A stretch of 55,779 nucleotides of DNA from Muribaculum sp. (GTDB lineage: Bacteria; Bacillota; Clostridia; Lachnospirales; Lachnospiraceae): positions 1 through 55,779 of the forward strand of contig JAMPGV010000008.1 in NCBI GenBank assembly GCA_023663735.1, written 5' to 3'. Both the position numbers and the translations under genes were made by a program. Below, in pieces: positions 2,266-21,336 of the stretch (position 1 is the first letter of the stretch; each line of letters opens with the position of its first letter). The notes beneath the pieces are model-generated. The model did not search any database and was not told where the DNA came from. It was given only the letters and a program-made list of their open reading frames with translations.

Positions 2266-3591
2266 TTATCTGTCAAGCTCTATGAAATCCTTAAAAGTCA
2301 ACATTGTATAACACAGACAGTCCCACCAGTCATTGCAGTTCCCGATATTTTTGTCCTCCGGCCGATCCGGATGATCCTCGTCCCACCGAAGGGATGCAAT
2401 GGCCTTCCGGATATTTGTACACCGCTGATTAATTTTTAACCTGCCTGTATTGAGCAGCAGGTCTATCATTTTGGGACGCTCCGCCACTTCATTCTTGGTG
2501 CATCCGGCTATATTGCGGTGTCGCAGTCCCGCCTCCTTGGCCGCGCTGATCAGGGAATTGATCATCGTAGGGCTTGCAGAATCCGGGAAAATCCAATCGA
2601 CGCGTCCATAACTTTTTACACACTTTATATAAAATTCTATAAACTTCCTGCAGATCGCCGCCGCGTCAATATCATCTGTCAGCGGCAGGGAATCCTCCTC
2701 CAGCACACGGATCAGGTGGTAGTTCTGTTGGTATCCTGACAGGCAAAACGTAGTCTTTGATCCGCTGCCGCCAAAATCAATTCCCATGACCAATTTGCTG
2801 AAGCCCTCACGCACTCTTCCATCCGGCGCGAAAACCTCCTCGTCTTTAAACAGATACGGAGCATCGTCCTCCGCAAAATACCTGAAGATCAGTCCGCTGG
2901 CCAGCACCCATAACCCCTGTATGAACCGATCATAGAACACGCCTTTGTACCTCCTCTCATACCGCTCCAAAACCTCCTTTGACAGCGACAAATTGTCAAG
3001 CATGGTAAAGTGGATGCGGATGAGATTCTTTTCTGCCAGACAGTCAATCCACTTTGTCTTGAAATAATGGTCCGGTCCTTCCGGATTGCAGTTGAACCAG
3101 ATCTTTGATCCTCTGACGGAACATCTTGCCGTTGCCTGATTGACAAAAGACTCCGGCATCAGCGCAACTTCGTCTAACAACAGCCCTGCAAGCGTGATTC
3201 CCTGAATTAAATCCTGTGACCCCTCATCCTTTCCTCCAAACAGGAAAAAGCAGTTTTTGTGTCGTCCGTCAAAAATTTCAAGATAGTTTTCTGAACGGTG
3301 TTCTACAATTCTATACCCTATACTCTGCAACTGCCGCTTGAGCGGCGCAATTATGTTACGCCTAGCTGACTGTACCGTCTTGCCGCATATGGCCAGATTT
3401 TCGCCATTAAAGGTCTCCATCGCCCACAGCACAAAAGACAATCCCATTGCGGTTGTCTTGCCGCTCCTGATGGCTCCGTCGCATATGATGCCGTCCTTGC
3501 CAGCATAGGGACTTTGGGGCATCCACCATTCCAGAACTATCCTTTGCTTTAAACTGAATTTGGAAAACTTGAACTCAGCTGCCCTCTTCAA
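2266..3591 (-). CDS. terL: Phage terminase large subunit
   Basis: ATP-driven DNA packaging motor and headful/site nuclease, 441 residues. Walker A is visible as GAIRSGKT (about residues 39-46) and Walker B as LLLDEVAL (about 136-143). The C-terminal nuclease region begins at MGIDFGGSG with its first acidic residue. This layout matches the PBSX/Terminase_3 type. The start is TTG at 3591, inside the 3' end of terS (17-bp overlap), with AAGGAGG 12 nt upstream; no ATG occurs before the ATPase domain, so TTG is needed. The overlap suggests translational coupling of the two terminase subunits. Confidence 0.92.
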   Translation of the reverse strand: MKRAAEFKFSKFSLKQRIVLEWWMPQSPYAGKDGIICDGAIRSGKTTAMGLSFVLWAMETFNGENLAICGKTVQSARRNIIAPLKRQLQSIGYRIVEHRSENYLEIFDGRHKNCFFLFGGKDEGSQDLIQGITLAGLLLDEVALMPESFVNQATARCSVRGSKIWFNCNPEGPDHYFKTKWIDCLAEKNLIRIHFTMLDNLSLSKEVLERYERRYKGVFYDRFIQGLWVLASGLIFRYFAEDDAPYLFKDEEVFAPDGRVREGFSKLVMGIDFGGSGSKTTFCLSGYQQNYHLIRVLEEDSLPLTDDIDAAAICRKFIEFYIKCVKSYGRVDWIFPDSASPTMINSLISAAKEAGLRHRNIAGCTKNEVAERPKMIDLLLNTGRLKINQRCTNIRKAIASLRWDEDHPDRPEDKNIGNCNDWWDCLCYTMLTFKDFIELDR

Positions 3592-4060
3592 TGATTCCTG
3601 ACGCCTCCTTAAACGTTTCCCCGGCCTGTTCTTTCAGAGCATCCATAAATCCAGATGATGCATATTCTATGGTGTCTTCTACCGTGCGTTTGTCGCGCCA
3701 ATCTTCCGCTTTCCGGTTCTTCAGCCAGAAGATCTGCGCCGTGGTGTCTGGCACCACATGCTTTATTGTCACCTTCCGCTTCACCAGAAAACCCTTTTCG
3801 TATTCTTCCGAAACCTCTTCATAGTCATATCCCAACGCTCTCTTCAACAGGGCATTCTCAACTTGCGTATCAACTACTTCTTTGCCCTTTTTTAGGGACT
3901 CCGAAATCTCCGGATATTTTTTCTTCCACTCGTACAGCGTGGATAGGGCAATTCCCATATTGTGGGCGATCTGCTCATCAGTCAGTCCGTTGCGCGCATA
4001 GGCTTCCAGCAGTATTAAATTGTCAGGTTCCAGCCACTTCCGGTATTTACCTGCTGCCAT
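3575..4060 (-). CDS. terS: Phage terminase small subunit
   Basis: DNA-recognition subunit of the packaging terminase, 161 residues. An N-terminal helix-turn-helix is visible (NGLTDEQIAHNMGIALSTLYEW, about 25-46), followed by an oligomerisation region with KRALGYDYEEV, typical of this family in Firmicute phages. The ATG at 4060 has AAGGAGG at a good distance. It is the first gene of the packaging operon and lies just after a strong transcription terminator. Confidence 0.88.
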   Translation of the reverse strand: MAAGKYRKWLEPDNLILLEAYARNGLTDEQIAHNMGIALSTLYEWKKKYPEISESLKKGKEVVDTQVENALLKRALGYDYEEVSEEYEKGFLVKRKVTIKHVVPDTTAQIFWLKNRKAEDWRDKRTVEDTIEYASSGFMDALKEQAGETFKEASGIIEEGS

Positions 4061-6477: not shown

Positions 6478-6559
6478 AATTCTCCTTTCCGGCGTCCGCG
6501 CACCTGCGGACGCCTGTCTGTTATTTCGTGATATACTAATCCCCTCCGGGACCGGAAGG

Positions 6560-6862
6560 TCAAAAATAACTGCGGCCGAAGATCCGCATCCACTCTTCGT
6601 GCGTATGAATCTGCTCAAAGGCTTCCTGCGCCTTGCGCTGAAGCAATCTGGCCAGCTCATGGTTGTTATGTACTGCCATGGGGCCGATCTCGTGATGCTG
6701 CAGACACAGGTACACTTTTAAACCGTACCGCTCCGAGAGTCTTCGTCCTGCCGTGCCAAATATGACGTGGTGTTCCTGCGTGGTGCGGCGGGCATGATCC
6801 TTGTTTAGTAACATGCATAGATAGCAGGTGCCGTCTCTTTTTTCATGAAGAATACTTTTCAT
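6560..6862 (-). CDS. HNH/treble-clef-like phage protein
   Basis: A 100-residue protein with CYLC near the N-terminus, then TQEHHVIFGTAGRR and LCLQHH...HNNHE. This Cys/His spacing is that of a small treble-clef (HNH-like) domain found beside phage replication genes; it may be a nuclease or a recombination accessory factor. The start overlaps the end of the next upstream gene by 20 bp. Domain call from pattern memory; activity not shown. Confidence 0.6.
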   Translation of the reverse strand: MKSILHEKRDGTCYLCMLLNKDHARRTTQEHHVIFGTAGRRLSERYGLKVYLCLQHHEIGPMAVHNNHELARLLQRKAQEAFEQIHTHEEWMRIFGRSYF

Positions 6863-8360
6863 TGAGCATCCTCTCCAGCGCTGCCGCCACGTTTACTGCG
6901 CTTTCATATGCAAGGCGCAAGGATTCTTCACCTACTTTGCCCGTCTCCAGATCTTCCGCTTCACATATTGCGTTGAAGAATGAATTCAGAAATGATGCAT
7001 CCTCTGCTGCATCATCCCACAGCAAGTGCCAATCGACTTCTGCTGCCGGATGCTCCTCCGGATCGTCCCCGGCGCCGCTCACCCCATGATTTGCTTCACG
7101 TCCTCCGCCCGCTGCAGCTCCAGCGCCCTCATGGTACTCTGATACCGTGTTCTCGGCCCCCGCATCCTGTCCGGGTTCCACATCATTTCCAAGATCTCCT
7201 GTTCCATCTGGCATTCCAGCGTGATCTGCGCTCTCCCCTGATTTTCCATTGCTTCCGTTTCCCTCCTCGTCTGCGTCTGCTGCATCCTGCGCCGTCTTCA
7301 CGGCTGCTGCCGCGGCTTCCTTTCCTTCTCCGTCTCCGGGACTTCCACCGTCCGTCTCATTCTTGTCCGGCAGATACTCCGGATAGTCCGCCACCTCCAT
7401 CTGGCCGGGGATCTCCGGTTCTTCCTGCGGTTTGAGCGCTTCCTTCGTATGTTCTGTCTCCTGTTCCTGCACCTCCGCCGTGCTGGTGTCCCCGTCTTTT
7501 TCCTCTTTCTGTTGCGACGTCGCAACAGAGTCCTCCAAGCCTTGATCTGTCAAAGCAGGAGCGGTTTTTTGTACAGTCTCTTCCGAAGTGATTTTTGCCT
7601 CGCTGTCAGTATTTCCGCCGCCGTAAAAGTCCCTCCATACATCCGGGTTCCTGCACGCTCCATAGATGCGGTAAACGTCGTTTAGAAGCTCCGGCCACGT
7701 CAGGCTTAGGGGTTCCGGCTGGGTCAGCAGTTTGTATTTGATTCCGGTGTTCCAGTCGTATAGGAAGAGGAACACGATGCCCTTTTTGTGGGATGCCTGT
7801 CCTGACGGATTCATCCGCTCCGCGGCCTCCTTGTATTTGGGCGGTTCCTGCTCCAGATCTTTCATGATCCCGTCCAGCATCTCTGCACGCGTCCGGAAAA
7901 AATCGATCAGGCATTTTTCCAACGGTGTCCGTTCTCCAGCTCCGGTCTCAGTCTCTTCCCGCGGTGCATCCTGTTTGACAAATTTTTTTAGTTCCCGGAT
8001 CTCCTTAATGGTTGTCTTATCTGTAATCATCCGGATATCGCTGTCAGACATCGTCAGCATCTCGGCCAGTTTTGAGGATGAAAAACCCTTATATTCTTCT
8101 TTCAGTTCCAGTGAATTGCCTCCCTCGCTGTATTTCTCGTTGATTGCGATAAATCGGCTCACGGTGCTTTCGCTGAGTCCGTATTCTTTCATGGCAAATT
8201 CAAAGATATCCGAAGCGCCGTCATACATGCCGGAGTCCCGGATCTGTTTCAGCCGGTATCCTATGTAGACAAAATTGCTGGCTGTTTCACTCAGTTTCCG
8301 CCGGATGTCTTCTTTCCATTGCATCCATTCGTCCAGTGTGATCTGTGTGTATTCGTCCAT
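6843..8360 (-). CDS. Phage HTH protein with long acidic tail
   Basis: A 505-residue protein. Residues 1-130 are helical and contain YGLSESTVSRFIAINEKYS, a helix-turn-helix of the ParB/KorB type, and FSSSKLAEMLTMSDSDI, a second HTH-like unit. The region about 260-430 is low complexity, rich in Glu, Asp, Gly and Ala, and probably disordered. The C-terminus is again helical. It likely binds DNA during replication or regulation; no catalytic motif is seen. GAGGAAA precedes the ATG. Confidence 0.6.
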   Translation of the reverse strand: MDEYTQITLDEWMQWKEDIRRKLSETASNFVYIGYRLKQIRDSGMYDGASDIFEFAMKEYGLSESTVSRFIAINEKYSEGGNSLELKEEYKGFSSSKLAEMLTMSDSDIRMITDKTTIKEIRELKKFVKQDAPREETETGAGERTPLEKCLIDFFRTRAEMLDGIMKDLEQEPPKYKEAAERMNPSGQASHKKGIVFLFLYDWNTGIKYKLLTQPEPLSLTWPELLNDVYRIYGACRNPDVWRDFYGGGNTDSEAKITSEETVQKTAPALTDQGLEDSVATSQQKEEKDGDTSTAEVQEQETEHTKEALKPQEEPEIPGQMEVADYPEYLPDKNETDGGSPGDGEGKEAAAAAVKTAQDAADADEEGNGSNGKSGESADHAGMPDGTGDLGNDVEPGQDAGAENTVSEYHEGAGAAAGGGREANHGVSGAGDDPEEHPAAEVDWHLLWDDAAEDASFLNSFFNAICEAEDLETGKVGEESLRLAYESAVNVAAALERMLNEKYSS

Positions 8361-11121: not shown

Positions 11122-11628
11122 TCACTCTTTGATTTCTGTAAAAATACCCCTGAGTGTCCGTTCCGTCCCAAACTTCCAGCGCATCCATTGCAGATAATCG
11201 TGGTGGTCTTTCACGGCGGCCAGCTCATGGCCGTTTTCCTGCACTATATTTAGGATGTCGCTCCACAAAACGGAATCTTCCGCTTCTTTTCCCCGGCTTG
11301 TCTTCCATCCGTTCTGCTGCCAGTCCCACGGCCACCGCCGCGTGATTGCTGAGACAATGTATCCGCATTCTGTGTGGACGACGATGCTGACAGCGTAGTT
11401 CATGCGCTGGACTGCATCCCTCAATGCATAGAGTACCAGCCGGGATTCGGTGGCGTCGTCATAGGCAGCTATGGCCGGGACACTTTCATAGTCCTCTTCT
11501 TGCCATTGGGCCGTCTGGCTGGTTCCTGTCTTCCGGTATATCTTTGTTTTGATGACGTAGCAGGTTTTGCCGCCGCCTCTTCCCGCCGCCCGGATGCTTG
11601 TCCCGATATAGATGTCCACTGTCCGCAT
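11122..11628 (-). CDS. RNase H-like phage protein
   Basis: A 168-residue protein with an RNase H-like fold pattern: VDIYIGTSI at the start (first strand with Asp), a middle strand SRLVLYALRDAVQRM, then IVVHTECGYIVSAITRRWPWDWQQNGW and a Trp-rich region as in RNase HI. The usual acidic residues are partly present (D4, E108 region, D138 region), so activity is plausible but not certain. A strong GGAAGGAGG site precedes the ATG inside the end of the HUH gene, with which it overlaps 143 bp in another frame. Confidence 0.6.
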   Translation of the reverse strand: MRTVDIYIGTSIRAAGRGGGKTCYVIKTKIYRKTGTSQTAQWQEEDYESVPAIAAYDDATESRLVLYALRDAVQRMNYAVSIVVHTECGYIVSAITRRWPWDWQQNGWKTSRGKEAEDSVLWSDILNIVQENGHELAAVKDHHDYLQWMRWKFGTERTLRGIFTEIKE

Positions 11629-12373
11629 CTCTTTCCTCCTTCCCCAGCCGCCGCAGGGTATAGTGCTGGTAGGGCAGCCCGCTGTATTTGTTGACGCCGT
11701 TCATCAGGGATCCCTTTACCAGCTCCCAGCCCTTGGGCGGCTTTGGTTCTTCCCGCCATCTGCGGGCGGGGATCTTCTCCCGTTTTTCCACAGGCCTCCT
11801 CAGGTTGCGGGACGGTATGTAGCTGAGTTTTTCGATCGTTCCATCCTTCGTGATCCGGTCCGCGGTTTCCTTGATGATGTACTCGGCCAGCACTCCGTAT
11901 TCGCCGGATTCGTCCAGCGGAGAAAAATAGGGTCGTCCCCTGATCCAGAGCCTCCGGATGATGGCCGCCGTGCTTTCCCTGTCATTGTGGCAGTCATTGA
12001 CGATCATGTGCCAGTGGACGGCTCCACGCTGTCCCGTCTCACAGGTGATGATGTATTTCAGTTCCCATCCCTGTCTTTTGAACGCGTTACGAAGCTTGTC
12101 CCGGAATTTCCGGATGACGGCGGGGGCGTCTTCGGGATCCGGCCTCTCCCCGGGGCGGCAGGTCAGCGTCACGTGCCAGTCCCCCGCTTCGAAGTTCAGC
12201 TCGATCAGCCGCCGCAGTTTCCGGGTGCGCTGCCACAGGTTCTGCCGTGCCATCTCCTCCGGGGTCTTTTTCCGCCGTGCCTGTCTCGGCATACCCGGCG
12301 CTCCGTATCTGATGTCATAGTATTTTAAAATCTCCATCCTGTTCCGGATACTGCAGCTCACTTTGGTGTACAT
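11486..12373 (-). CDS. HUH-type replication initiator (Rep-like)
   Basis: A 295-residue protein with the three motifs of rolling-circle initiators in order: WHVTLTCRPG (motif 1, about 66-75), AVHWHMIVN (H120-x-H122, metal-binding HUH motif), and EYIIKE (Tyr165 with Lys168, the nicking tyrosine). This is the layout of the G2P/REP_ORF2-type replication proteins. In a terminase-encoding phage it may start replication or act as a nickase. The last 47 residues run over the start of the RNase H-like gene and look unlike a designed tail, so the stop may have shifted by mutation. GAGAGAGG precedes the ATG. Confidence 0.7.
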   Translation of the reverse strand: MYTKVSCSIRNRMEILKYYDIRYGAPGMPRQARRKKTPEEMARQNLWQRTRKLRRLIELNFEAGDWHVTLTCRPGERPDPEDAPAVIRKFRDKLRNAFKRQGWELKYIITCETGQRGAVHWHMIVNDCHNDRESTAAIIRRLWIRGRPYFSPLDESGEYGVLAEYIIKETADRITKDGTIEKLSYIPSRNLRRPVEKREKIPARRWREEPKPPKGWELVKGSLMNGVNKYSGLPYQHYTLRRLGKEERDADSGHLYRDKHPGGGKRRRQNLLRHQNKDIPEDRNQPDGPMARRGL

Positions 12374-13985: not shown

Positions 13986-14283
13986 ATGTGATACTGGTTG
14001 TACTTGTTGCCTGCTATTCTTATACGCAATTTTTCCCATAGCTTCTTTTGATAAATGCTTTGCACGTCTCATCCGTCTTTCTATTCCTTGTTCTGTGGCC
14101 TGCTACACAATGTCCTGAATATGTCGGAGCGTACCCATTTCCACATTTGACATAATGCTGAATAAAATTGCTGCAGTATTCACAGTTTTTAGGCAGTCCC
14201 GCCCTGTTTCCGCAGATATTCTGTAATTCCTCCAGCTGGGATTTTAATGCAATGTTTTCCACTTCTAATTCCTTAACCTTGTC
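13986..14283. repeat. Direct repeat copy A (298 bp)
   Basis: Identical to 14790-15087 except for one base (14275 versus 15079), an offset of exactly 804 bp. It carries almost the whole cysteine-rich gene plus its 3' flank. The left boundary lies 26 bp before the next gene and the right boundary within the first codons of the gene, so the first few residues and the promoters differ between copies. Confidence 0.95.
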
Positions 14284-14295
14284 CGCTATCATCAT
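14020..14295 (-). CDS. Cysteine-rich coiled-coil phage protein, copy A
   Basis: A 91-residue protein. Residues 4-27 form a short coiled coil (DKVKELEVENIALKSQLEEL); the rest has Cys at 28, 38, 41, 51, 62, 78 and 90 with GHC...GHR, suggesting one or two zinc sites. No family name is known to me. It differs from copy B only in its first residues (MMIADK versus MLGDK). Preceded by a consensus promoter whose spacer is an operator dyad, so it should be strongly made when derepressed. Confidence 0.7.
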   Translation of the reverse strand: MMIADKVKELEVENIALKSQLEELQNICGNRAGLPKNCEYCSNFIQHYVKCGNGYAPTYSGHCVAGHRTRNRKTDETCKAFIKRSYGKNCV

Positions 14296-14308
14296 TCCAC
14301 CTCCATTT

Positions 14309-14367
14309 ACGCCATGTTATGGCGTATTATTAATTTTGATTATATGCCATAATATGGCATATGTCAA
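14309..14367 (-). promoter_or_regulatory. Consensus promoter with XRE-type operators for copy A
   Basis: Minus-strand -35 TTGACA (14362-14367) and -10 TATAAT (14339-14344), spacing 17. A perfect dyad with arms ATATGCCATA (14342-14351) and TATGGCATAT (14353-14362) fills the spacer. A second perfect dyad, ACGCCAT-GTT-ATGGCGT (14309-14325), lies just downstream. The shared half-site is GCCAT. The divergent XRE gene at 14387 is the natural binder, so both genes are probably controlled together. Confidence 0.85.
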
Positions 14368-14386
14368 CACTATTTGGAGGTGTCCC

Positions 14387-14662
14387 ATGTTCAATGACCG
14401 CTTACGCGCAACAAGAATCTCTCGTGGCTTTACTGCACAGGCATTGGCAGATAAACTTAATACCGGATTGAGAAATTATCAAAAATATGAGAGTGGTGAT
14501 GCGCGCCCAACTTTTGAGGGGCTGGTAGCCCTTGCTGATATATTAAATGTTCCTACTGATTTTCTTTTGGAACGGGATCTTTATCTGACATCTCTCGGAG
14601 TTTCCGTTGATGTATCCCTAGAATGTCCTCCAAGGCGTCCCAAACCTCAAAAGACCCCATAG
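14387..14662 (+). CDS. XRE-family repressor 1
   Basis: A 91-residue regulator with an HTH near the N-terminus (RGFTAQALADKLNTGLRNYQKYESGD, about 12-37) and ALADILNVPTDFLLERD. The start ATG at 14387 has TTGGAGG upstream; the longer open frame to the left is not coding. It faces the cysteine-rich gene A across the two GCCAT dyads. Its last 110 bp overlap, in the opposite direction, a second XRE gene that shares the GLR.YQK.E.GD motif. Confidence 0.85.
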   Translation: MFNDRLRATRISRGFTAQALADKLNTGLRNYQKYESGDARPTFEGLVALADILNVPTDFLLERDLYLTSLGVSVDVSLECPPRRPKPQKTP

Positions 14663-14774
14663 AATCACCTGCTTCAAGCTTTTGATAATGCCTAAGTCCT
14701 ATATCTAATCTGTCTGCCATCTGCTGCTGTGTCATGCCCGCCCTCTGGCGGGCTTCTTTTAAGTTTCTTCTCAT
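14553..14774 (-). CDS. XRE-family regulator 2, convergent with regulator 1
   Basis: A 73-residue HTH protein, RQRAGMTQQQMADRLDIGLRHYQKLEAGD (about 9-37), followed by LEDILGIHQRKLRE. The ATG at 14774 is the first supported start; upstream open frame is the shadow of gene B. It lies 49 bp downstream of cysteine-rich gene B and is probably co-transcribed with it from the promoter at 15123-15151. Its 3' end overlaps that of XRE 1 by 110 bp in antisense. Confidence 0.75.
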   Translation of the reverse strand: MRRNLKEARQRAGMTQQQMADRLDIGLRHYQKLEAGDSMGSFEVWDALEDILGIHQRKLREMSDKDPVPKENQ

Positions 14775-14789
14775 GCTATCTCTGCCTTG

Positions 14790-15087
14790 ATGTGATACTG
14801 GTTGTACTTGTTGCCTGCTATTCTTATACGCAATTTTTCCCATAGCTTCTTTTGATAAATGCTTTGCACGTCTCATCCGTCTTTCTATTCCTTGTTCTGT
14901 GGCCTGCTACACAATGTCCTGAATATGTCGGAGCGTACCCATTTCCACATTTGACATAATGCTGAATAAAATTGCTGCAGTATTCACAGTTTTTAGGCAG
15001 TCCCGCCCTGTTTCCGCAGATATTCTGTAATTCCTCCAGCTGGGATTTTAATGCAATGTTTTCCACTTCTAATTCCTTGACCTTGTC
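14790..15087. repeat. Direct repeat copy B (298 bp)
   Basis: Second copy of the 13986-14283 sequence with one base difference. The 506 bp between the copies contain only the control region and the two convergent XRE genes, so recombination between copies would delete exactly that switch. Confidence 0.95.
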
Positions 15088-15096
15088 TCCTAACAT
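14824..15096 (-). CDS. Cysteine-rich coiled-coil phage protein, copy B
   Basis: A 90-residue protein identical to copy A from its fifth residue on (DKVKELEVENIALK...), with the same Cys pattern. Its 5' end and promoter are different and are controlled by ribbon-helix-helix-type half-sites. AAAGGAGG precedes the ATG. Confidence 0.7.
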   Translation of the reverse strand: MLGDKVKELEVENIALKSQLEELQNICGNRAGLPKNCEYCSNFIQHYVKCGNGYAPTYSGHCVAGHRTRNRKTDETCKAFIKRSYGKNCV

Positions 15097-15177
15097 TTGT
15101 TCTACCTCCTTTTGTTAGCAATATACTAACATTTGTGAGTAGAATTGTCAATTTGTTTTTGATACAATGTGCTAACA
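15090..15177 (-). promoter_or_regulatory. Promoter and RHH-type half-sites for copy B
   Basis: Minus-strand -35 TTGACA (15146-15151), spacer 17, -10 TAGTAT (15123-15128). A dyad TGTTAG-7-CTAACA (15113-15131) covers the -10. Further CTAACA half-sites lie at 15090-15095 (over the start codon) and 15172-15177 (before the divergent gene). Spaced short half-sites fit a ribbon-helix-helix repressor, and the divergent gene encodes one. Confidence 0.8.
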
Positions 15178-15200
15178 ACAATAGCTAGGAGGTTATCATC

Positions 15201-15386
15201 ATGGCAGTATCAAAAATCCAAACGGGACTCCGCATTGACGAAACAACTTACGGTAAACTAAAAACCCTTTCTGAAACTGAAAACCGCTCCTTAAATAACT
15301 TAGTTGAATTTATAATCAAAAAGTATTTATCTGATTACGAAAAAGAAAGCGGCACTATTCCAATTGCTCCTTATCCAGAAAATTAA
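15201..15386 (+). CDS. Ribbon-helix-helix regulator 1 (Arc/MetJ type)
   Basis: A 61-residue protein. The N-terminal strand KIQTGLRI (5-12) is followed by two helices (DETTYGKLKTLSETEN; SLNNLVEFIIKKYL), the ribbon-helix-helix layout. TAGGAGG precedes the ATG. It diverges from cysteine-rich gene B across TGTTAG/CTAACA sites and converges with a second RHH gene carrying the same KIQTGLRI strand. Confidence 0.85.
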   Translation: MAVSKIQTGLRIDETTYGKLKTLSETENRSLNNLVEFIIKKYLSDYEKESGTIPIAPYPEN

Positions 15387-15513
15387 GACCAATATCCACC
15401 AAAATGAGTATAAGCTGATTAATTGACACACCCATTCTGTCAGCTTTCTCTTTTATTCTGTTGTACTGATTTCCCGGTATCCTTAATCCGGTCTGAATTT
15501 TATCATCTGCCAT
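15355..15513 (-). CDS. Ribbon-helix-helix regulator 2, convergent with regulator 1
   Basis: A 52-residue protein, MADDKIQTGLRIPGNQYNRI then KEKADRMGVSINQLILILVD. It has the same DNA-contacting strand KIQTGLRI as RHH 1 and similar helices, so the two may bind the same operators or form mixed dimers. It starts inside the end of the coiled-coil gene (11-bp overlap), and its 3' end overlaps RHH 1 by 32 bp in antisense. Confidence 0.75.
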   Translation of the reverse strand: MADDKIQTGLRIPGNQYNRIKEKADRMGVSINQLILILVDIGLNFLDKEQLE

Positions 15514-15901: not shown

Positions 15902-15947
15902 TCACCTCCCCTACTTTATTGACAATATTCTCTTGTTGCATTATTCT
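15902..15947 (+). promoter_or_regulatory. Promoter for the 62-residue gene; repeat block copy 1
   Basis: TTGACA (15919-15924), 17 nt, TATTCT (15942-15947) on the plus strand. Bases 15902-15938 are repeated at 16484-16520 with two differences. On the minus strand the same block supplies the GGAGGTGA ribosome site of the coiled-coil gene, so one block serves both directions. Confidence 0.7.
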
Positions 15948-16483: not shown

Positions 16484-16529
16484 TCACCTCCTCTGCTTTA
16501 TTGACAATATTCTCTTGTTGTGCTAATTT
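16484..16529 (+). repeat. Second copy of the promoter/RBS block
   Basis: Bases 16484-16520 match 15902-15938 in 35 of 37 positions. On the plus strand it again reads TTGACA-17-TAATTT, but no plus-strand gene follows; any transcript would be antisense to the 42-residue gene. On the minus strand it gives the ribosome site of the 54-residue gene. Confidence 0.75.
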
Positions 16530-16856: not shown

Positions 16857-16923
16857 ATTATATTTCATTTAGTGATTATTGTCAATATATATCATTGACA
16901 TTTTTGTCATTAAATGATATATT
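16857..16923. promoter_or_regulatory. Divergent phage control promoters
   Basis: Leftward: TTGACA (16880-16885), 17 nt, TATAAT (16857-16862), a perfect consensus. Rightward: TTGACA (16895-16900), 17 nt, TATATT (16918-16923), reading into the repressor. The stretch between contains inverted elements ATATCATT / AATGATAT and GACA / TGTC, likely operators of the XRE protein encoded at 16944. This is the presumed lysogeny switch. Confidence 0.85.
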
Positions 16924-16943: not shown

Positions 16944-17318
16944 GTGAATACTATAGGTGAACGCATTCGATATATAAGAAAAGAAAAATTGCATAAATCT
17001 CAAAAAGATTTTGGTCAAATCTTAGGGCTGAAATCAAATTCTATCAGTTGTATTGAGACAGGCACCAATACTCCTGCTGACCAAACTATAAAGGCGATCT
17101 GTCGCGAATTTGATATCAATGAAGATTGGCTTCGTAATGGGACTGAACCTATGCGCAATATACGCACCAGAAACCAAGAGATCGGTGCTTTTGCAAATGA
17201 GATCATGGATCTGCCGGATGATGCCTTTAAAAAACGTTTTGTCGAAGCCTTAAAGAAACTTGATACCAAAGACTGGGAGACGCTGGAGAAGATTGCAAGC
17301 ACAATAAAAGAGGGCTAA
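16944..17318 (+). CDS. Master XRE-family phage repressor
   Basis: A 124-residue protein. N-terminal HTH (KSQKDFGQILGLKSNSISCI, then ETGTNTPADQTI, about 18-50), NEDWLRNGTEP, then a C-terminal helical region with FVEALKKLDTKDWETLEKIA, probably for dimerisation. The GTG start at 16944 has AAGGAGG. No LexA-like cleavage domain is visible, so induction may need an antirepressor. It is the best candidate for the lysogeny repressor because of the divergent consensus promoters. Confidence 0.85.
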   Translation: MNTIGERIRYIRKEKLHKSQKDFGQILGLKSNSISCIETGTNTPADQTIKAICREFDINEDWLRNGTEPMRNIRTRNQEIGAFANEIMDLPDDAFKKRFVEALKKLDTKDWETLEKIASTIKEG

Positions 17319-19717: not shown

Positions 19718-19749
19718 ACACCCGCTAATTGCCAGAAGAGGAGAATCCC

Positions 19750-21336
19750 ATGTCTGATCCCAAATATTGCGCCTATCTCCGCAAGAGCCGCGCCGACAGG
19801 GACGCGGAGCTGCGCGGGGAAGGGGATGTGCTGGCGCGCCACCGCGCCATGCTGGAAGATCTGGCAGCCCGCATGGGCATCACACTGGACGAATGGTACT
19901 GCGAAGTAGTGTCCGGTGACACCATCGCAGACCGCCCTGAAATGCAGCGCCTGCTCTCCGATGTGGAGGCCGGGCACTTTCTTGGCGTGCTGGTGGTGGA
20001 AGTAGAGCGTCTTGCCCGCGGCAACACCAGAGATCAGGGCATCGTGGCCGACGCTTTCAAATACTCAGGCACCAAGATCATCACGCCGCTCAAGACCTAT
20101 GATCCCAACGATGAGTTTGATGAGGAATACTTTGAGTTCGGCCTGTATATGGCCAGACGGGAATACAAGACCATCAACCGCAGACTGCAGCGCGGCCGGA
20201 TCCGCTCCGTTATGGAGGGGCGTTTTGTCGGCGGTACCGCTCCTTATGGATACCGCAAGGTCAAGATTCCCAAAGAAAAGGGCTACACCCTTGAAATCGT
20301 GCCGGAGGAAGCCAAGATTGTCTCCTGCATCTATGAATGGTACTGCAGCGGTCTCCTGCTGCCAGACGGCTCTCTCCGCCGCCTCGGTCCTGACGGCATC
20401 GCCCGTCAGCTTGACCTGCTGGGTGTAAAGCCGCCCCGGCAGAACGTCTGGTCCAAAGCCACCATATCCGACATTCTGCGGAATATTGTCTATGCCGGTT
20501 ATGTCTATTTCGGCCGCCAGAAGGAAGTCAAATCCTCCGTCAACGGCCGGATTGTCAAAATGCGCAAAAGCAACCCTGACTATGAAATCTACAAGGGACT
20601 GCACCCGGCGATCATTCCGGAGGAAACCTTCCGTCTGGCACAGGAGATCCGCAGCGGCAACCGCAAAAACACGCTGCCCGCCATGCAGACTCTGCAGAAT
20701 CCGCTTGCGGGACTCGTCTACTGTAAAAAATGCGGCAGGCTCATGACTCGTCTGGCGCCAAACAGCCGCAACCGCTATTCCACGTTGAAATGCCCGAACC
20801 GATACTGCGACAACATCTCAGCTCCGCTGTTTCTGGTGGAGCAGGAGCTGCTGCGCTTTCTTCAGGCATGGCTTGCGGATTACGAACTGCACCACGCTGA
20901 CCGTGACGCAGTACCCTTCCGGGAAGAGATCGCCATCCAGACAGAATCCATTCGCCGTCTGGAGGAGCAGACCGCCGGGATCCGGAATCAGCTGAATAAA
21001 ACTTATGATCTGCTGGAGCAGGGTATTTATACCCCTCAGATCTTCAGGGAACGGCACGACACGCTTCAGGCGCAGATCGATGCCGCAGAAAAGACAAAGC
21101 GGCAGCTGATCCGCGACGTGGATAAGCTCAATGCACTCCGTATCGAACAAGAACAGCTCATCCCCAAAATACAAGGGCTGTTGGATGCCTATCAAGGGAA
21201 CTCTCCCGCCTCCAACAACCGGATCCTGAAAGAGATCATTGAGCGCATCACTTATCAAAAGAATGCGCCCAATCGCCGCGGCCAGCTCCACAATACCAAC
21301 TTCACGCTGGAGGTATTCCCTCGAATCCCCACATGA
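19750..21336 (+). CDS. Large serine recombinase (prophage integrase)
   Basis: A 528-residue site-specific recombinase. The resolvase domain has YLRKSR with the catalytic Ser13, VVSGDTIADRPEMQRLL and EVERLARGNTRDQG. A recombinase domain follows (GTAPYGYRK...LNNLG-like region LDLLGVKPPRQNVWSKATI), then a zinc ribbon (YCKKCGRLMTR...CPNRYCDN, about 325-355) and a coiled coil (about 385-470). I choose the ATG at 19750 with AGAGGAG; a TTG 21 bp upstream lacks a site. Serine integrases act at short attB/attP sites and need a separate directionality factor for excision; none is obvious nearby. Confidence 0.93.
   Translation: MSDPKYCAYLRKSRADRDAELRGEGDVLARHRAMLEDLAARMGITLDEWYCEVVSGDTIADRPEMQRLLSDVEAGHFLGVLVVEVERLARGNTRDQGIVADAFKYSGTKIITPLKTYDPNDEFDEEYFEFGLYMARREYKTINRRLQRGRIRSVMEGRFVGGTAPYGYRKVKIPKEKGYTLEIVPEEAKIVSCIYEWYCSGLLLPDGSLRRLGPDGIARQLDLLGVKPPRQNVWSKATISDILRNIVYAGYVYFGRQKEVKSSVNGRIVKMRKSNPDYEIYKGLHPAIIPEETFRLAQEIRSGNRKNTLPAMQTLQNPLAGLVYCKKCGRLMTRLAPNSRNRYSTLKCPNRYCDNISAPLFLVEQELLRFLQAWLADYELHHADRDAVPFREEIAIQTESIRRLEEQTAGIRNQLNKTYDLLEQGIYTPQIFRERHDTLQAQIDAAEKTKRQLIRDVDKLNALRIEQEQLIPKIQGLLDAYQGNSPASNNRILKEIIERITYQKNAPNRRGQLHNTNFTLEVFPRIPT

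What the first reader, a model, noticed from the sequence alone, without database searches (positions are those of the whole stretch)
13986..15513. Duplicated switch: one cysteine-rich gene in two copies under two different repressor types
Two units have the same layout: cysteine-rich gene (-), operator with consensus promoter, regulator (+), and a minus-strand paralogue of that regulator converging on it. In unit A the regulators are XRE proteins sharing GLR.YQK.E.GD; in unit B they are ribbon-helix-helix proteins sharing KIQTGLRI. The cysteine-rich genes are 297/298 bp identical but start under different promoters. The same architecture with swapped DNA-binding folds looks like a modular regulatory cassette, perhaps for escape from superinfection immunity or for dosage of one effector. 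I know of no described system of this kind.
Basis: partly seen in the sequence, partly recalled or inferred. Interest (0 to 1): 0.85.

Follow-up and report, generated by a model that had tools for sequence, protein, structure and literature searches.

The report
Tandem phage repressor cassettes with private operators
A gut-bacterium prophage carries two copies of one small gene, each locked by its own matched pair of DNA-binding proteins, and related phages carry rows of such locks with changing keys, which looks like a modular, swappable genetic switch.

Summary
In detail: the copies match at 297 of 298 bases, with different promoters and regulators. Relatives show the layout is a recurrent cassette: "sense" regulator, convergent tail-overlapping "anti" paralogue, operators in a near-consensus promoter, small effector. 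Of distinct sense genes, 40 of 41 and later 21 of 21, two already seen, have the convergent partner.

Four results explain the design. (1) The paralogues covary most strongly at recognition-helix/loop positions (held-out p=0.00045). (2) The sense helix tracks the operator, the sense background does not; one residue (Lys) goes with AGTG-N11-CACT, 9/9 against 0/25. (3) The repressor transcript's terminator is embedded in the sense gene's first codons. (4) Tandem arrays in other loci repeat near-identical effectors under divergent regulators.

The ribbon-helix-helix unit follows the same plan but rests on two loci. Best reading: a CI/Cro-like two-reader switch rebuilt as a convergent, swappable specificity block, chained in the early operon. 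Binding, relay and the effector's role are inferred. The ten paper searches made found no description. New variant of a known kind.

The parts
14020..14295 (-). Effector copy A: 91-aa protein, coiled-coil N-terminus plus four-cysteine C-terminus (C38xxC41..GxC63..C78)
   Evidence: four Cys invariant in 19 aligned relatives; AlphaFold helix 3-28 then beta hairpin, mean pLDDT 68, low
14824..15096 (-). Effector copy B, 90 aa
13986..14283 (.). Repeat copy A (298 nt)
14790..15087 (.). Repeat copy B (297/298 identical to A)
14387..14662 (+). Unit A 'anti' XRE regulator, divergent from effector A; proposed local repressor
   Evidence: HTH_3 8e-11; conserved in relatives
14553..14774 (-). Unit A 'sense' XRE regulator, convergent with the anti gene, 49 nt after effector B
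14339..14367 (-). Promoter of effector A, TTGACA-17-TATAAT (12/12)
14342..14362 (.). Operator O1 of unit A, perfect palindrome ATATGCCATAATATGGCATAT in the -35/-10 spacer
   Evidence: motif found only here and at O2 in the window (9 of 100 shuffles reach two matches)
14308..14326 (.). Operator O2 of unit A, TACGCCATgttATGGCGTA; the pattern scan also reads it as terminator-like on the + strand
14736..14763 (+). Intrinsic terminator of the anti (+) transcript, lying inside the first codons of the sense gene
   Evidence: hairpin -15.5 kcal/mol, z -3.8
15201..15386 (+). Unit B 'anti' ribbon-helix-helix regulator
   Evidence: relative L021 87%
15355..15513 (-). Unit B 'sense' ribbon-helix-helix regulator, same beta-strand KIQTGLRI
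   Evidence: (L021 88%)
15123..15151 (-). Promoter of effector B, TTGACA-17-TAGTAT (10/12)
15113..15131 (.). Candidate RHH operator TGTTAGcaatataCTAACA over the -10; further CTAACA half-sites at 15090 and 15172
   Evidence: one match at up to 2 mismatches; 51 of 100 shuffles have one, but this one is exact; CTAACA half-sites recur in L021
15412..15457 (+). Candidate terminator of the RHH anti transcript inside the RHH sense gene (8-bp stem, long loop, U-rich tail)
   Evidence: z -3.3; L021 equivalent z -5.0; reverse strand also folds, z -2.8; not listed by the scan, whose loops are limited to 8

Best explanation
Each unit is a self-contained switch cassette in the early operon of a temperate phage. 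The anti protein is the local repressor: it reads a private palindromic operator placed inside the effector promoter (O1) and a second copy downstream (O2). The sense protein is a paralogue that reads the same operators, like Cro beside CI, but its gene lies tail-to-tail behind the repressor gene and is made from the upstream transcript. The repressor transcript ends at a terminator written into the first codons of the sense gene, so the two messages are antisense to each other over nearly the whole sense gene, a second, transcript-level mutual exclusion. The convergent layout keeps sense helix, repressor and operators in one contiguous block of about 0.4-0.5 kb between conserved DNA (sense 5' end and effector gene), so a whole lock and key can be exchanged in one recombination. 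In tandem arrays promoter n makes effector n plus the sense protein of cassette n+1: a relay of gates, with the same effector behind different locks. Shown by sequence: layout, covariation, operator code, terminator signals, arrays. Inferred: binding, repression, antagonism by the sense protein, the actual transcripts, relay, role of the effector.
For: Convergent partner in 40 of 41 distinct sense genes and 21 of 21 in a later search, two of them seen before. Helix covariation: of 3721 column pairs the top four by corrected mutual information are the homologous positions 27, 37, 31, 30; 28 non-redundant of 40 pairs. Held-out on 7 non-redundant of 21 new pairs, positions fixed beforehand: 0.786 identical against 0.480 expected, p=0.00045; other tested columns 0.298 against 0.289. 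Operator similarity follows the sense helix (r=0.45, p=0.0002) and not the sense background (r=0.04, p=0.29), 25 of 28 cassettes; by segment the peak is the helix, 0.48, against 0.08 for aa 42-54 and 0.20 for the C-terminus. Lys at position 30 of sense: AGTG-N11-CACT in 9 of 9, otherwise 0 of 25 (independent held-out part 2 of 2 and 0 of 5). Effector promoter mean 11.1/12 against 8.0 in mononucleotide shuffles; O1 palindrome 5.4 against 4.0; O1 recurs in its own downstream zone, p=1e-4, best or tied-best there in 15 of 25. Upstream of the sense gene the best promoter score is 7-10, with 2 of 28 at 10. Terminator: T-rich tail in 38 of 45 elements on the anti strand, 0 of 45 on the sense strand. 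In nine adjacent pairs from six arrays a sense helix matches its own anti (18 of 36 positions) better than the preceding one (11 of 36). In L020 the first cassette's promoter leads directly into the next sense gene.
Against: No transcription or binding data. A promoter for the anti gene could not be found above chance (8.2 against 8.0 shuffled, 25 cassettes). Weaker covariation also appears at positions 16, 20, 26 and 41, and in the held-out set position 27 alone is not significant (p=0.14). The anti background correlates with the operator better than its helix (0.60 against 0.37), as linked inheritance would give, so for the anti protein the code is not separated from ancestry. The AGTG rule was noticed on the training set. 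Held-out operator test has only 5 cassettes (r=0.81, p=0.02). In 4 of 9 array comparisons own and previous anti tie. The RHH version rests on two loci; a third convergent RHH pair (L103) does not share the strand. Some members deviate: L089 has no anti, L012 has a Cys gene without the pair, L173 has one cassette with a repressor-like gene on the same strand.
Confidence: 0.62

Rival explanations
1. Redundant locks for escape from superinfection immunity: each anti protein silences the effector of an incoming phage with the same operator; a phage with the same effector behind two different locks still makes it in a lysogen that blocks one. (Compatible with the best explanation.)
For: Near-identical effectors under divergent regulators in the window, L007, L173, and partial copies in L020, L028/L042, L004; operators differ between cassettes and in the window the XRE operator occurs only in unit A.
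Against: No immunity data; near-identity of effectors is also expected if the effector gene is just the recombination joint; other tandem effectors are only 72-77% identical.
Confidence: 0.4
2. The sense proteins are not functional regulators but decaying duplicates kept because their first codons are the terminator of the anti gene.
For: Codons 8-13 are strongly fixed at DNA level; element copies without the rest of the gene sit 9-29 nt behind unrelated convergent genes in four loci; the sense frame of L009 appears broken within the element.
Against: The sense recognition helix tracks the operator and the anti helix while the rest of the protein does not, which decay would not produce. (Open frames are no evidence: they were a selection criterion.)
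Confidence: 0.08
3. Toxin-antitoxin-like module: the small Cys protein is toxic and the XRE/RHH proteins are antitoxins.
For: Small divergent gene; XRE and RHH folds are common in antitoxins; sub-cutoff NCBIfam hits to antitoxin families for the regulators; PADLOC hits of the XRE proteins to HTH-bearing defence regulators, best RmrA 1.5e-10.
Against: The Cys protein matches no toxin family in Pfam, NCBIfam or PADLOC; it is divergent from its regulator, not in an operon with it; two paralogous readers are not a TA feature (recalled).
Confidence: 0.07
4. TF-smORF-type induction module: the divergent regulator activates the small protein, which inactivates the main repressor.
For: Same divergent TF/small-protein layout and recognition-helix specificity as in PMC10432266 (abstract and passages seen).
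Against: O1 lies between -35 and -10 of a near-consensus promoter, which fits repression rather than activation; no second reader appears in the passages seen.
Confidence: 0.15
5. Assembly artefact: two phage variants merged through the 298-bp repeat.
For: Fragmented metagenome assembly; the L020 and L028 contigs end inside such repeats.
Against: Both junctions are needed and both fit the array plan; arrays lie inside contigs in L007 and L173.
Confidence: 0.07

Closest known systems
CI/Cro switch of lambdoid phages (434, P22, lambda; recalled)
   Same: Two small HTH proteins that appear to read the same palindromic operators at an early promoter; anti family matches P22 C2 repressor chain 1adr (7e-8), and both families match the ICEBs1 XRE regulator 7t8i best
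   Different: Second reader is convergent and overlapping, upstream rather than the first gene of the controlled promoter; partner-embedded terminator; tandem arrays; RHH version
TF-smORF prophage modules (Silpe et al. 2023, PMC10432266; abstract and passages seen)
   Same: Divergent TF and small protein; promoter specificity in a few recognition-helix residues; modules unlike in sequence share one logic
   Different: There the TF activates; no convergent paralogue and no arrays with repeated effector in the passages seen; studied in Vibrio and Aeromonas phages
P22 immI (mnt-arc-ant; passages of PMC8022706 seen)
   Same: Two regulators (RHH by recall) at a secondary immunity locus inside another operon
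   Different: Ant is an antirepressor; neither effector here matches a Pfam family above cut-off
Noncontiguous operon / excludon (PMC7154746; passages seen)
   Same: Gene of opposite direction inside an operon with overlapping, mutually antisense messages
   Different: Here both overlapping genes encode apparent readers of one operator, and the terminator is coding sequence
RstR repressors and CTX arrays (NF041951; CTX papers seen only as a listing)
   Same: Small XRE repressors; phage arrays (recalled)
   Different: Matches below the curated cut-off (55.8 and 72.4 against 80); in CTX whole prophages are tandem (recalled)

Membership tests
CI/Cro switch | two proteins reading one operator set | tested here: inconclusive
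   strong covariation and operator tracking, no binding assay
CI/Cro switch | the two genes divergent, operators between them | tested here: not met
   convergent with coding overlap in 40 of 41 and 21 of 21
CI/Cro switch | Cro is first gene of the controlled early promoter | tested here: not met
   the sense gene lies upstream of the controlled promoter
TF-smORF module | TF divergent from a small-protein gene | tested here: met
   (a few cassettes cut by contig ends or without a clear small gene)
TF-smORF module | TF activates the small gene | not testable with these tools
   operator position suggests repression
TF-smORF module | small protein inactivates cI | not testable with these tools
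   no assay
P22 immI | effector is an antirepressor | tested here: not met
   no Pfam family above cut-off for the two main effector families; a remote antirepressor is not excluded
Type II toxin-antitoxin | toxin gene of a known family beside an antitoxin | tested here: not met
RstR repressors | score above the NCBIfam cut-off | tested here: not met
   two anti proteins tested
Noncontiguous operon | overlapping transcripts, reciprocally regulated | not testable with these tools
   layout and terminator signals fit

The most novel reading that the evidence does not exclude
A fold-independent phage cassette class: any paired paralogous DNA-binding proteins placed tail-to-tail, with the terminator of one written in the coding sequence of the other, form an exchangeable lock-and-key block, and phages chain these blocks as a relay that fires the same effector repeatedly under orthogonal controls.
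Probability: 0.35. Interest if true: 0.88.

Novelty: new variant of a known kind. Interest (0 to 1): 0.74.

Why it matters
It gives a natural library of matched repressor/antagonist/operator sets with a readable helix-to-operator relation, a concrete case where coding sequence doubles as an opposing gene's terminator, and a testable account of how phages could change immunity specificity in one step while keeping all matching parts together. If the relay holds, it is a multi-gate early programme that the paper searches made here did not turn up.

Tried and rejected
Searches of 50,697 phage records with the Cys protein, the sense protein and the DNA and of 72,556 plasmids with a sense protein gave nothing. 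The conserved hairpin was first taken for a recombination or attC-like site because of orphan copies; the strand-specific T tract and the convergent genes behind four orphans pointed to a terminator. Other orphan-like copies (L006, L054, L056, L007 1347) have no convincing convergent gene. A promoter for the anti gene: not above chance. More RHH pairs: 54 of 392 genomes matched; of the 30 loci fetched one was the window, and among the other 29 only L103 held a convergent RHH pair, without shared strand. Effector function: coiled coil and a low-confidence beta hairpin (pLDDT 68); second effector a two-helix hairpin (pLDDT 90); no fold search was run, because such simple shapes match at random. 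Solved structures: the Cys profile matched only coiled coils at E 0.17 or worse. Ten paper searches listed no description of convergent overlapping repressor pairs of one specificity, nor of such arrays; only the best rows of each were seen and most subscription papers are not held.
Full report
The finding. The window is a whole contig (C72) of a 2.6-Mb assembly of 73 contigs. Named relatives of the locus are assemblies titled Lachnospiraceae or Acetatifactor (5 of 7) and, by their titles, Bacillus and Bacteroides (1 each). Bases 1 to about 21.4 kb look like a prophage: terminase (2266-3591, Terminase_6N 1e-14) and serine recombinase (19729-21336), replication initiator (11486-12373, PHROG 3584, 4e-41), and a portal-like ORF (858-2276, judged by eye). 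The two units lie in the minus-strand early region, between a likely main immunity switch (XRE 16944-17318 with back-to-back promoters at 16885-16857 and 16895-16923; inferred) and the replication genes.

Recurrence. Searching the Cys protein and its alignment found 12 further distinct loci (L014, L018, L011, L013, L016 and L017 repeat others). In 10 of them, and in the window, the gene stands beside a sense/anti XRE pair; L019 has the anti gene and is cut by the contig end; L012 has no pair beside it. A search with the sense protein brought the set to 41 distinct sense genes scoring 85 bits or more; 40 have a convergent anti gene with coding overlap of 4 to 134 nt, L089 has none. A later search of 397 genomes of the family found 15 with matches, the window's included; 21 of 21 distinct sense genes had the partner, two of them already in the first set. 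Strong matches are uncommon among close relatives: at E 1e-8, 12 of 146 genomes, of which 5 score above 100 bits, the window's included.

Effectors. In 20 of the 40 cassettes a hit of the Cys profile follows the operators; five more (L023, L026, L027, L030, second of L042) carry a helical family of 77-98 aa, aligned with the effector of L021; the rest are looser Cys-rich proteins (for example L024, L045, L087, by eye), other small genes, or cut by contig ends. The Cys family has seven invariant residues including four cysteines in 19 aligned members. The RHH pair of L021 (87% and 88% identical to the window's) drives the helical family, the window's drives the Cys family. So both regulator folds occur with both effector families.

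Paired specificity. On 28 non-redundant pairs, residues at the same position of sense and anti agree more than in shuffled pairs at positions 27, 30, 31 and 37 (p 0.0004 or less, 5000 shuffles), weaker at 16, 20, 26 and 41; 27, 37, 31 and 30 are the top four of 3721 column pairs after background correction. By recalled alignment with 434 repressor they correspond to Gln29, Glu32, Gln33 and Thr39, at or next to the DNA. On 7 held-out pairs the four positions, fixed beforehand, agree 0.786 against 0.480 expected (p=0.00045; singly p 0.14, 0.045, 0.002 and 0.027 for 27, 30, 31, 37); the other tested columns, ten near the helix left out, agree 0.298 against 0.289.

Operators. In 25 of 28 cassettes the effector promoter scores 10 or more of 12, all with a 17-base spacer; mean over 28 is 11.1 against 8.0 in mononucleotide shuffles. 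A palindrome fills the spacer (5.4 against 4.0 with shuffled spacers). The spacer sequence recurs in the 54 bases downstream in the same cassette (13.8 of 17 against 9.7 in other cassettes, p=1e-4; own zone best or tied-best for 15 of 25). Operator similarity follows the sense helix (r=0.45) but not the sense background (r=0.04); segment by segment the helix gives 0.48, the loop after it 0.31, the N-terminus -0.16, helix 2 0.04, aa 42-54 0.08, the C-terminus 0.20 (p=0.04). Because the half of the sense gene nearest the anti gene is lower than the helix, linkage alone does not explain the peak. For the anti protein every segment correlates (0.30-0.50), as expected of linked inheritance. A simple rule holds: Lys at position 30 of sense goes with AGTG-N11-CACT in the operator region, 9 of 9; with Gln or Arg, 0 of 25 (p=2e-8; one further cassette, L009, not classifiable). 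The rule was noticed on the training set; its held-out part is 2 of 2 and 0 of 5. In the window the XRE operator occurs only twice, both in unit A.

Embedded terminator. Codons 8, 9, 12 and 13 of the sense gene use one codon each in 96, 92, 87 and 88%, although the same amino acids later in the gene vary (Ala20 36%, Gly36 68%, Gly40 36%) (26 genes). The DNA forms a 7-bp G+C hairpin; on the anti strand it is followed by a T-rich stretch in 38 of 45 elements, on the sense strand in 0 of 45 (the 45 include two, L146 and L149, that look unrelated). The window copy is listed as terminator-like on the + strand, by a scan that finds 7 sites against 4.8 in shuffles, and folds at z -3.8. Of 16 elements flagged as lacking the full sense motif, some are real sense genes missed by that test (L009, L040, L045, L048, L140); four others lie 9-29 nt behind the stop of an unrelated convergent gene (L004, L007, L062, L142), the remainder not clearly. 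A further copy in L004 near 3572 lies beside the stop of ORF 3602-4006. The RHH unit has its own version: a hairpin with U-rich tail inside the RHH sense gene (z -3.3; -5.0 in L021).

Arrays. L007 has three cassettes in 2.4 kb, effectors 1 and 2 98.5% identical while their anti proteins are 43% identical; the 97% repeat runs from just before the effector start through the effector into the first 23 codons of the next sense gene, stopping before the recognition helix. L020, L028/L042 (two ends of one contig) and L004 hold partial near-identical copies (94.7, 98.3 and 96.5% over 170, 118 and 170 nt). Not all copies are homogeneous: L007 2/3 72.5%, L173 a/b 77%, L024 75.7%. The sense gene follows the previous effector by 12-49 nt in the window, L007, L020 and L173, and in L020 the first cassette's promoter leads straight into the next sense gene. 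Upstream of sense genes no strong promoter was seen: best scores 7-10, 2 of 28 at 10, one of these being that L020 promoter (these regions were not shuffled). In nine adjacent pairs from six arrays, sense helices match their own anti (18 of 36 positions) better than the anti of the preceding cassette (11 of 36); own is never worse, 4 of 9 tie.

Mechanism. I take the anti protein as repressor of the effector promoter, the sense protein as a second reader supplied by the upstream transcript, and overlapping messages as an added exclusion. Whether sense relieves or deepens repression is not decided by sequence. The relay and the backup-lock ideas are compatible; both are inference. The effector may be a small metal-binding early regulator, judged only from four invariant cysteines and a coiled coil. 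Some effector operons seem to continue into antirepressor-like genes (Rha, BRO or ORF6N type), recognised by eye and not searched.

Comparison. It works like CI/Cro but fails two defining layout features, so I do not file it there. TF-smORF modules are the closest in idea. The ten paper searches listed no description of this arrangement; they cover open-licence papers only.

Noticed in passing
window 16857-16923: Back-to-back near-consensus promoters (12/12 minus, 11/12 plus) beside XRE 16944-17318: likely the main immunity switch of the prophage.
   Followed up: no
window 15902-15938 and 16484-16520: A second, 37-bp direct repeat (95%) in the early region.
   Followed up: no
L173 (reverse complement 6530-7021): A variant cassette in which a longer repressor-like gene lies on the same strand as the effector.
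   Followed up: partly
L007 1347-1398: Orphan copy of the sense 5' element for which no convergent gene was identified.
   Followed up: no
L006 1807-2277: Sense-like N-terminus fused to an unrelated sequence of over 100 aa, with no convergent XRE partner.
   Followed up: no
L106 613-1137: A single RHH gene divergent from a different Cys-rich small protein, perhaps a reduced cassette.
   Followed up: no
L127: Four RHH genes in a row on one strand, three nearly identical.
   Followed up: no
L004 4675-5556: Protein with many near-identical ANNPAVQMAQQL repeats next to a truncated second Cys copy.
   Followed up: no
L021 2832-3692: ORF resembling an HNH/homing endonuclease (by eye) directly behind the effector of the RHH cassette.
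   Followed up: no
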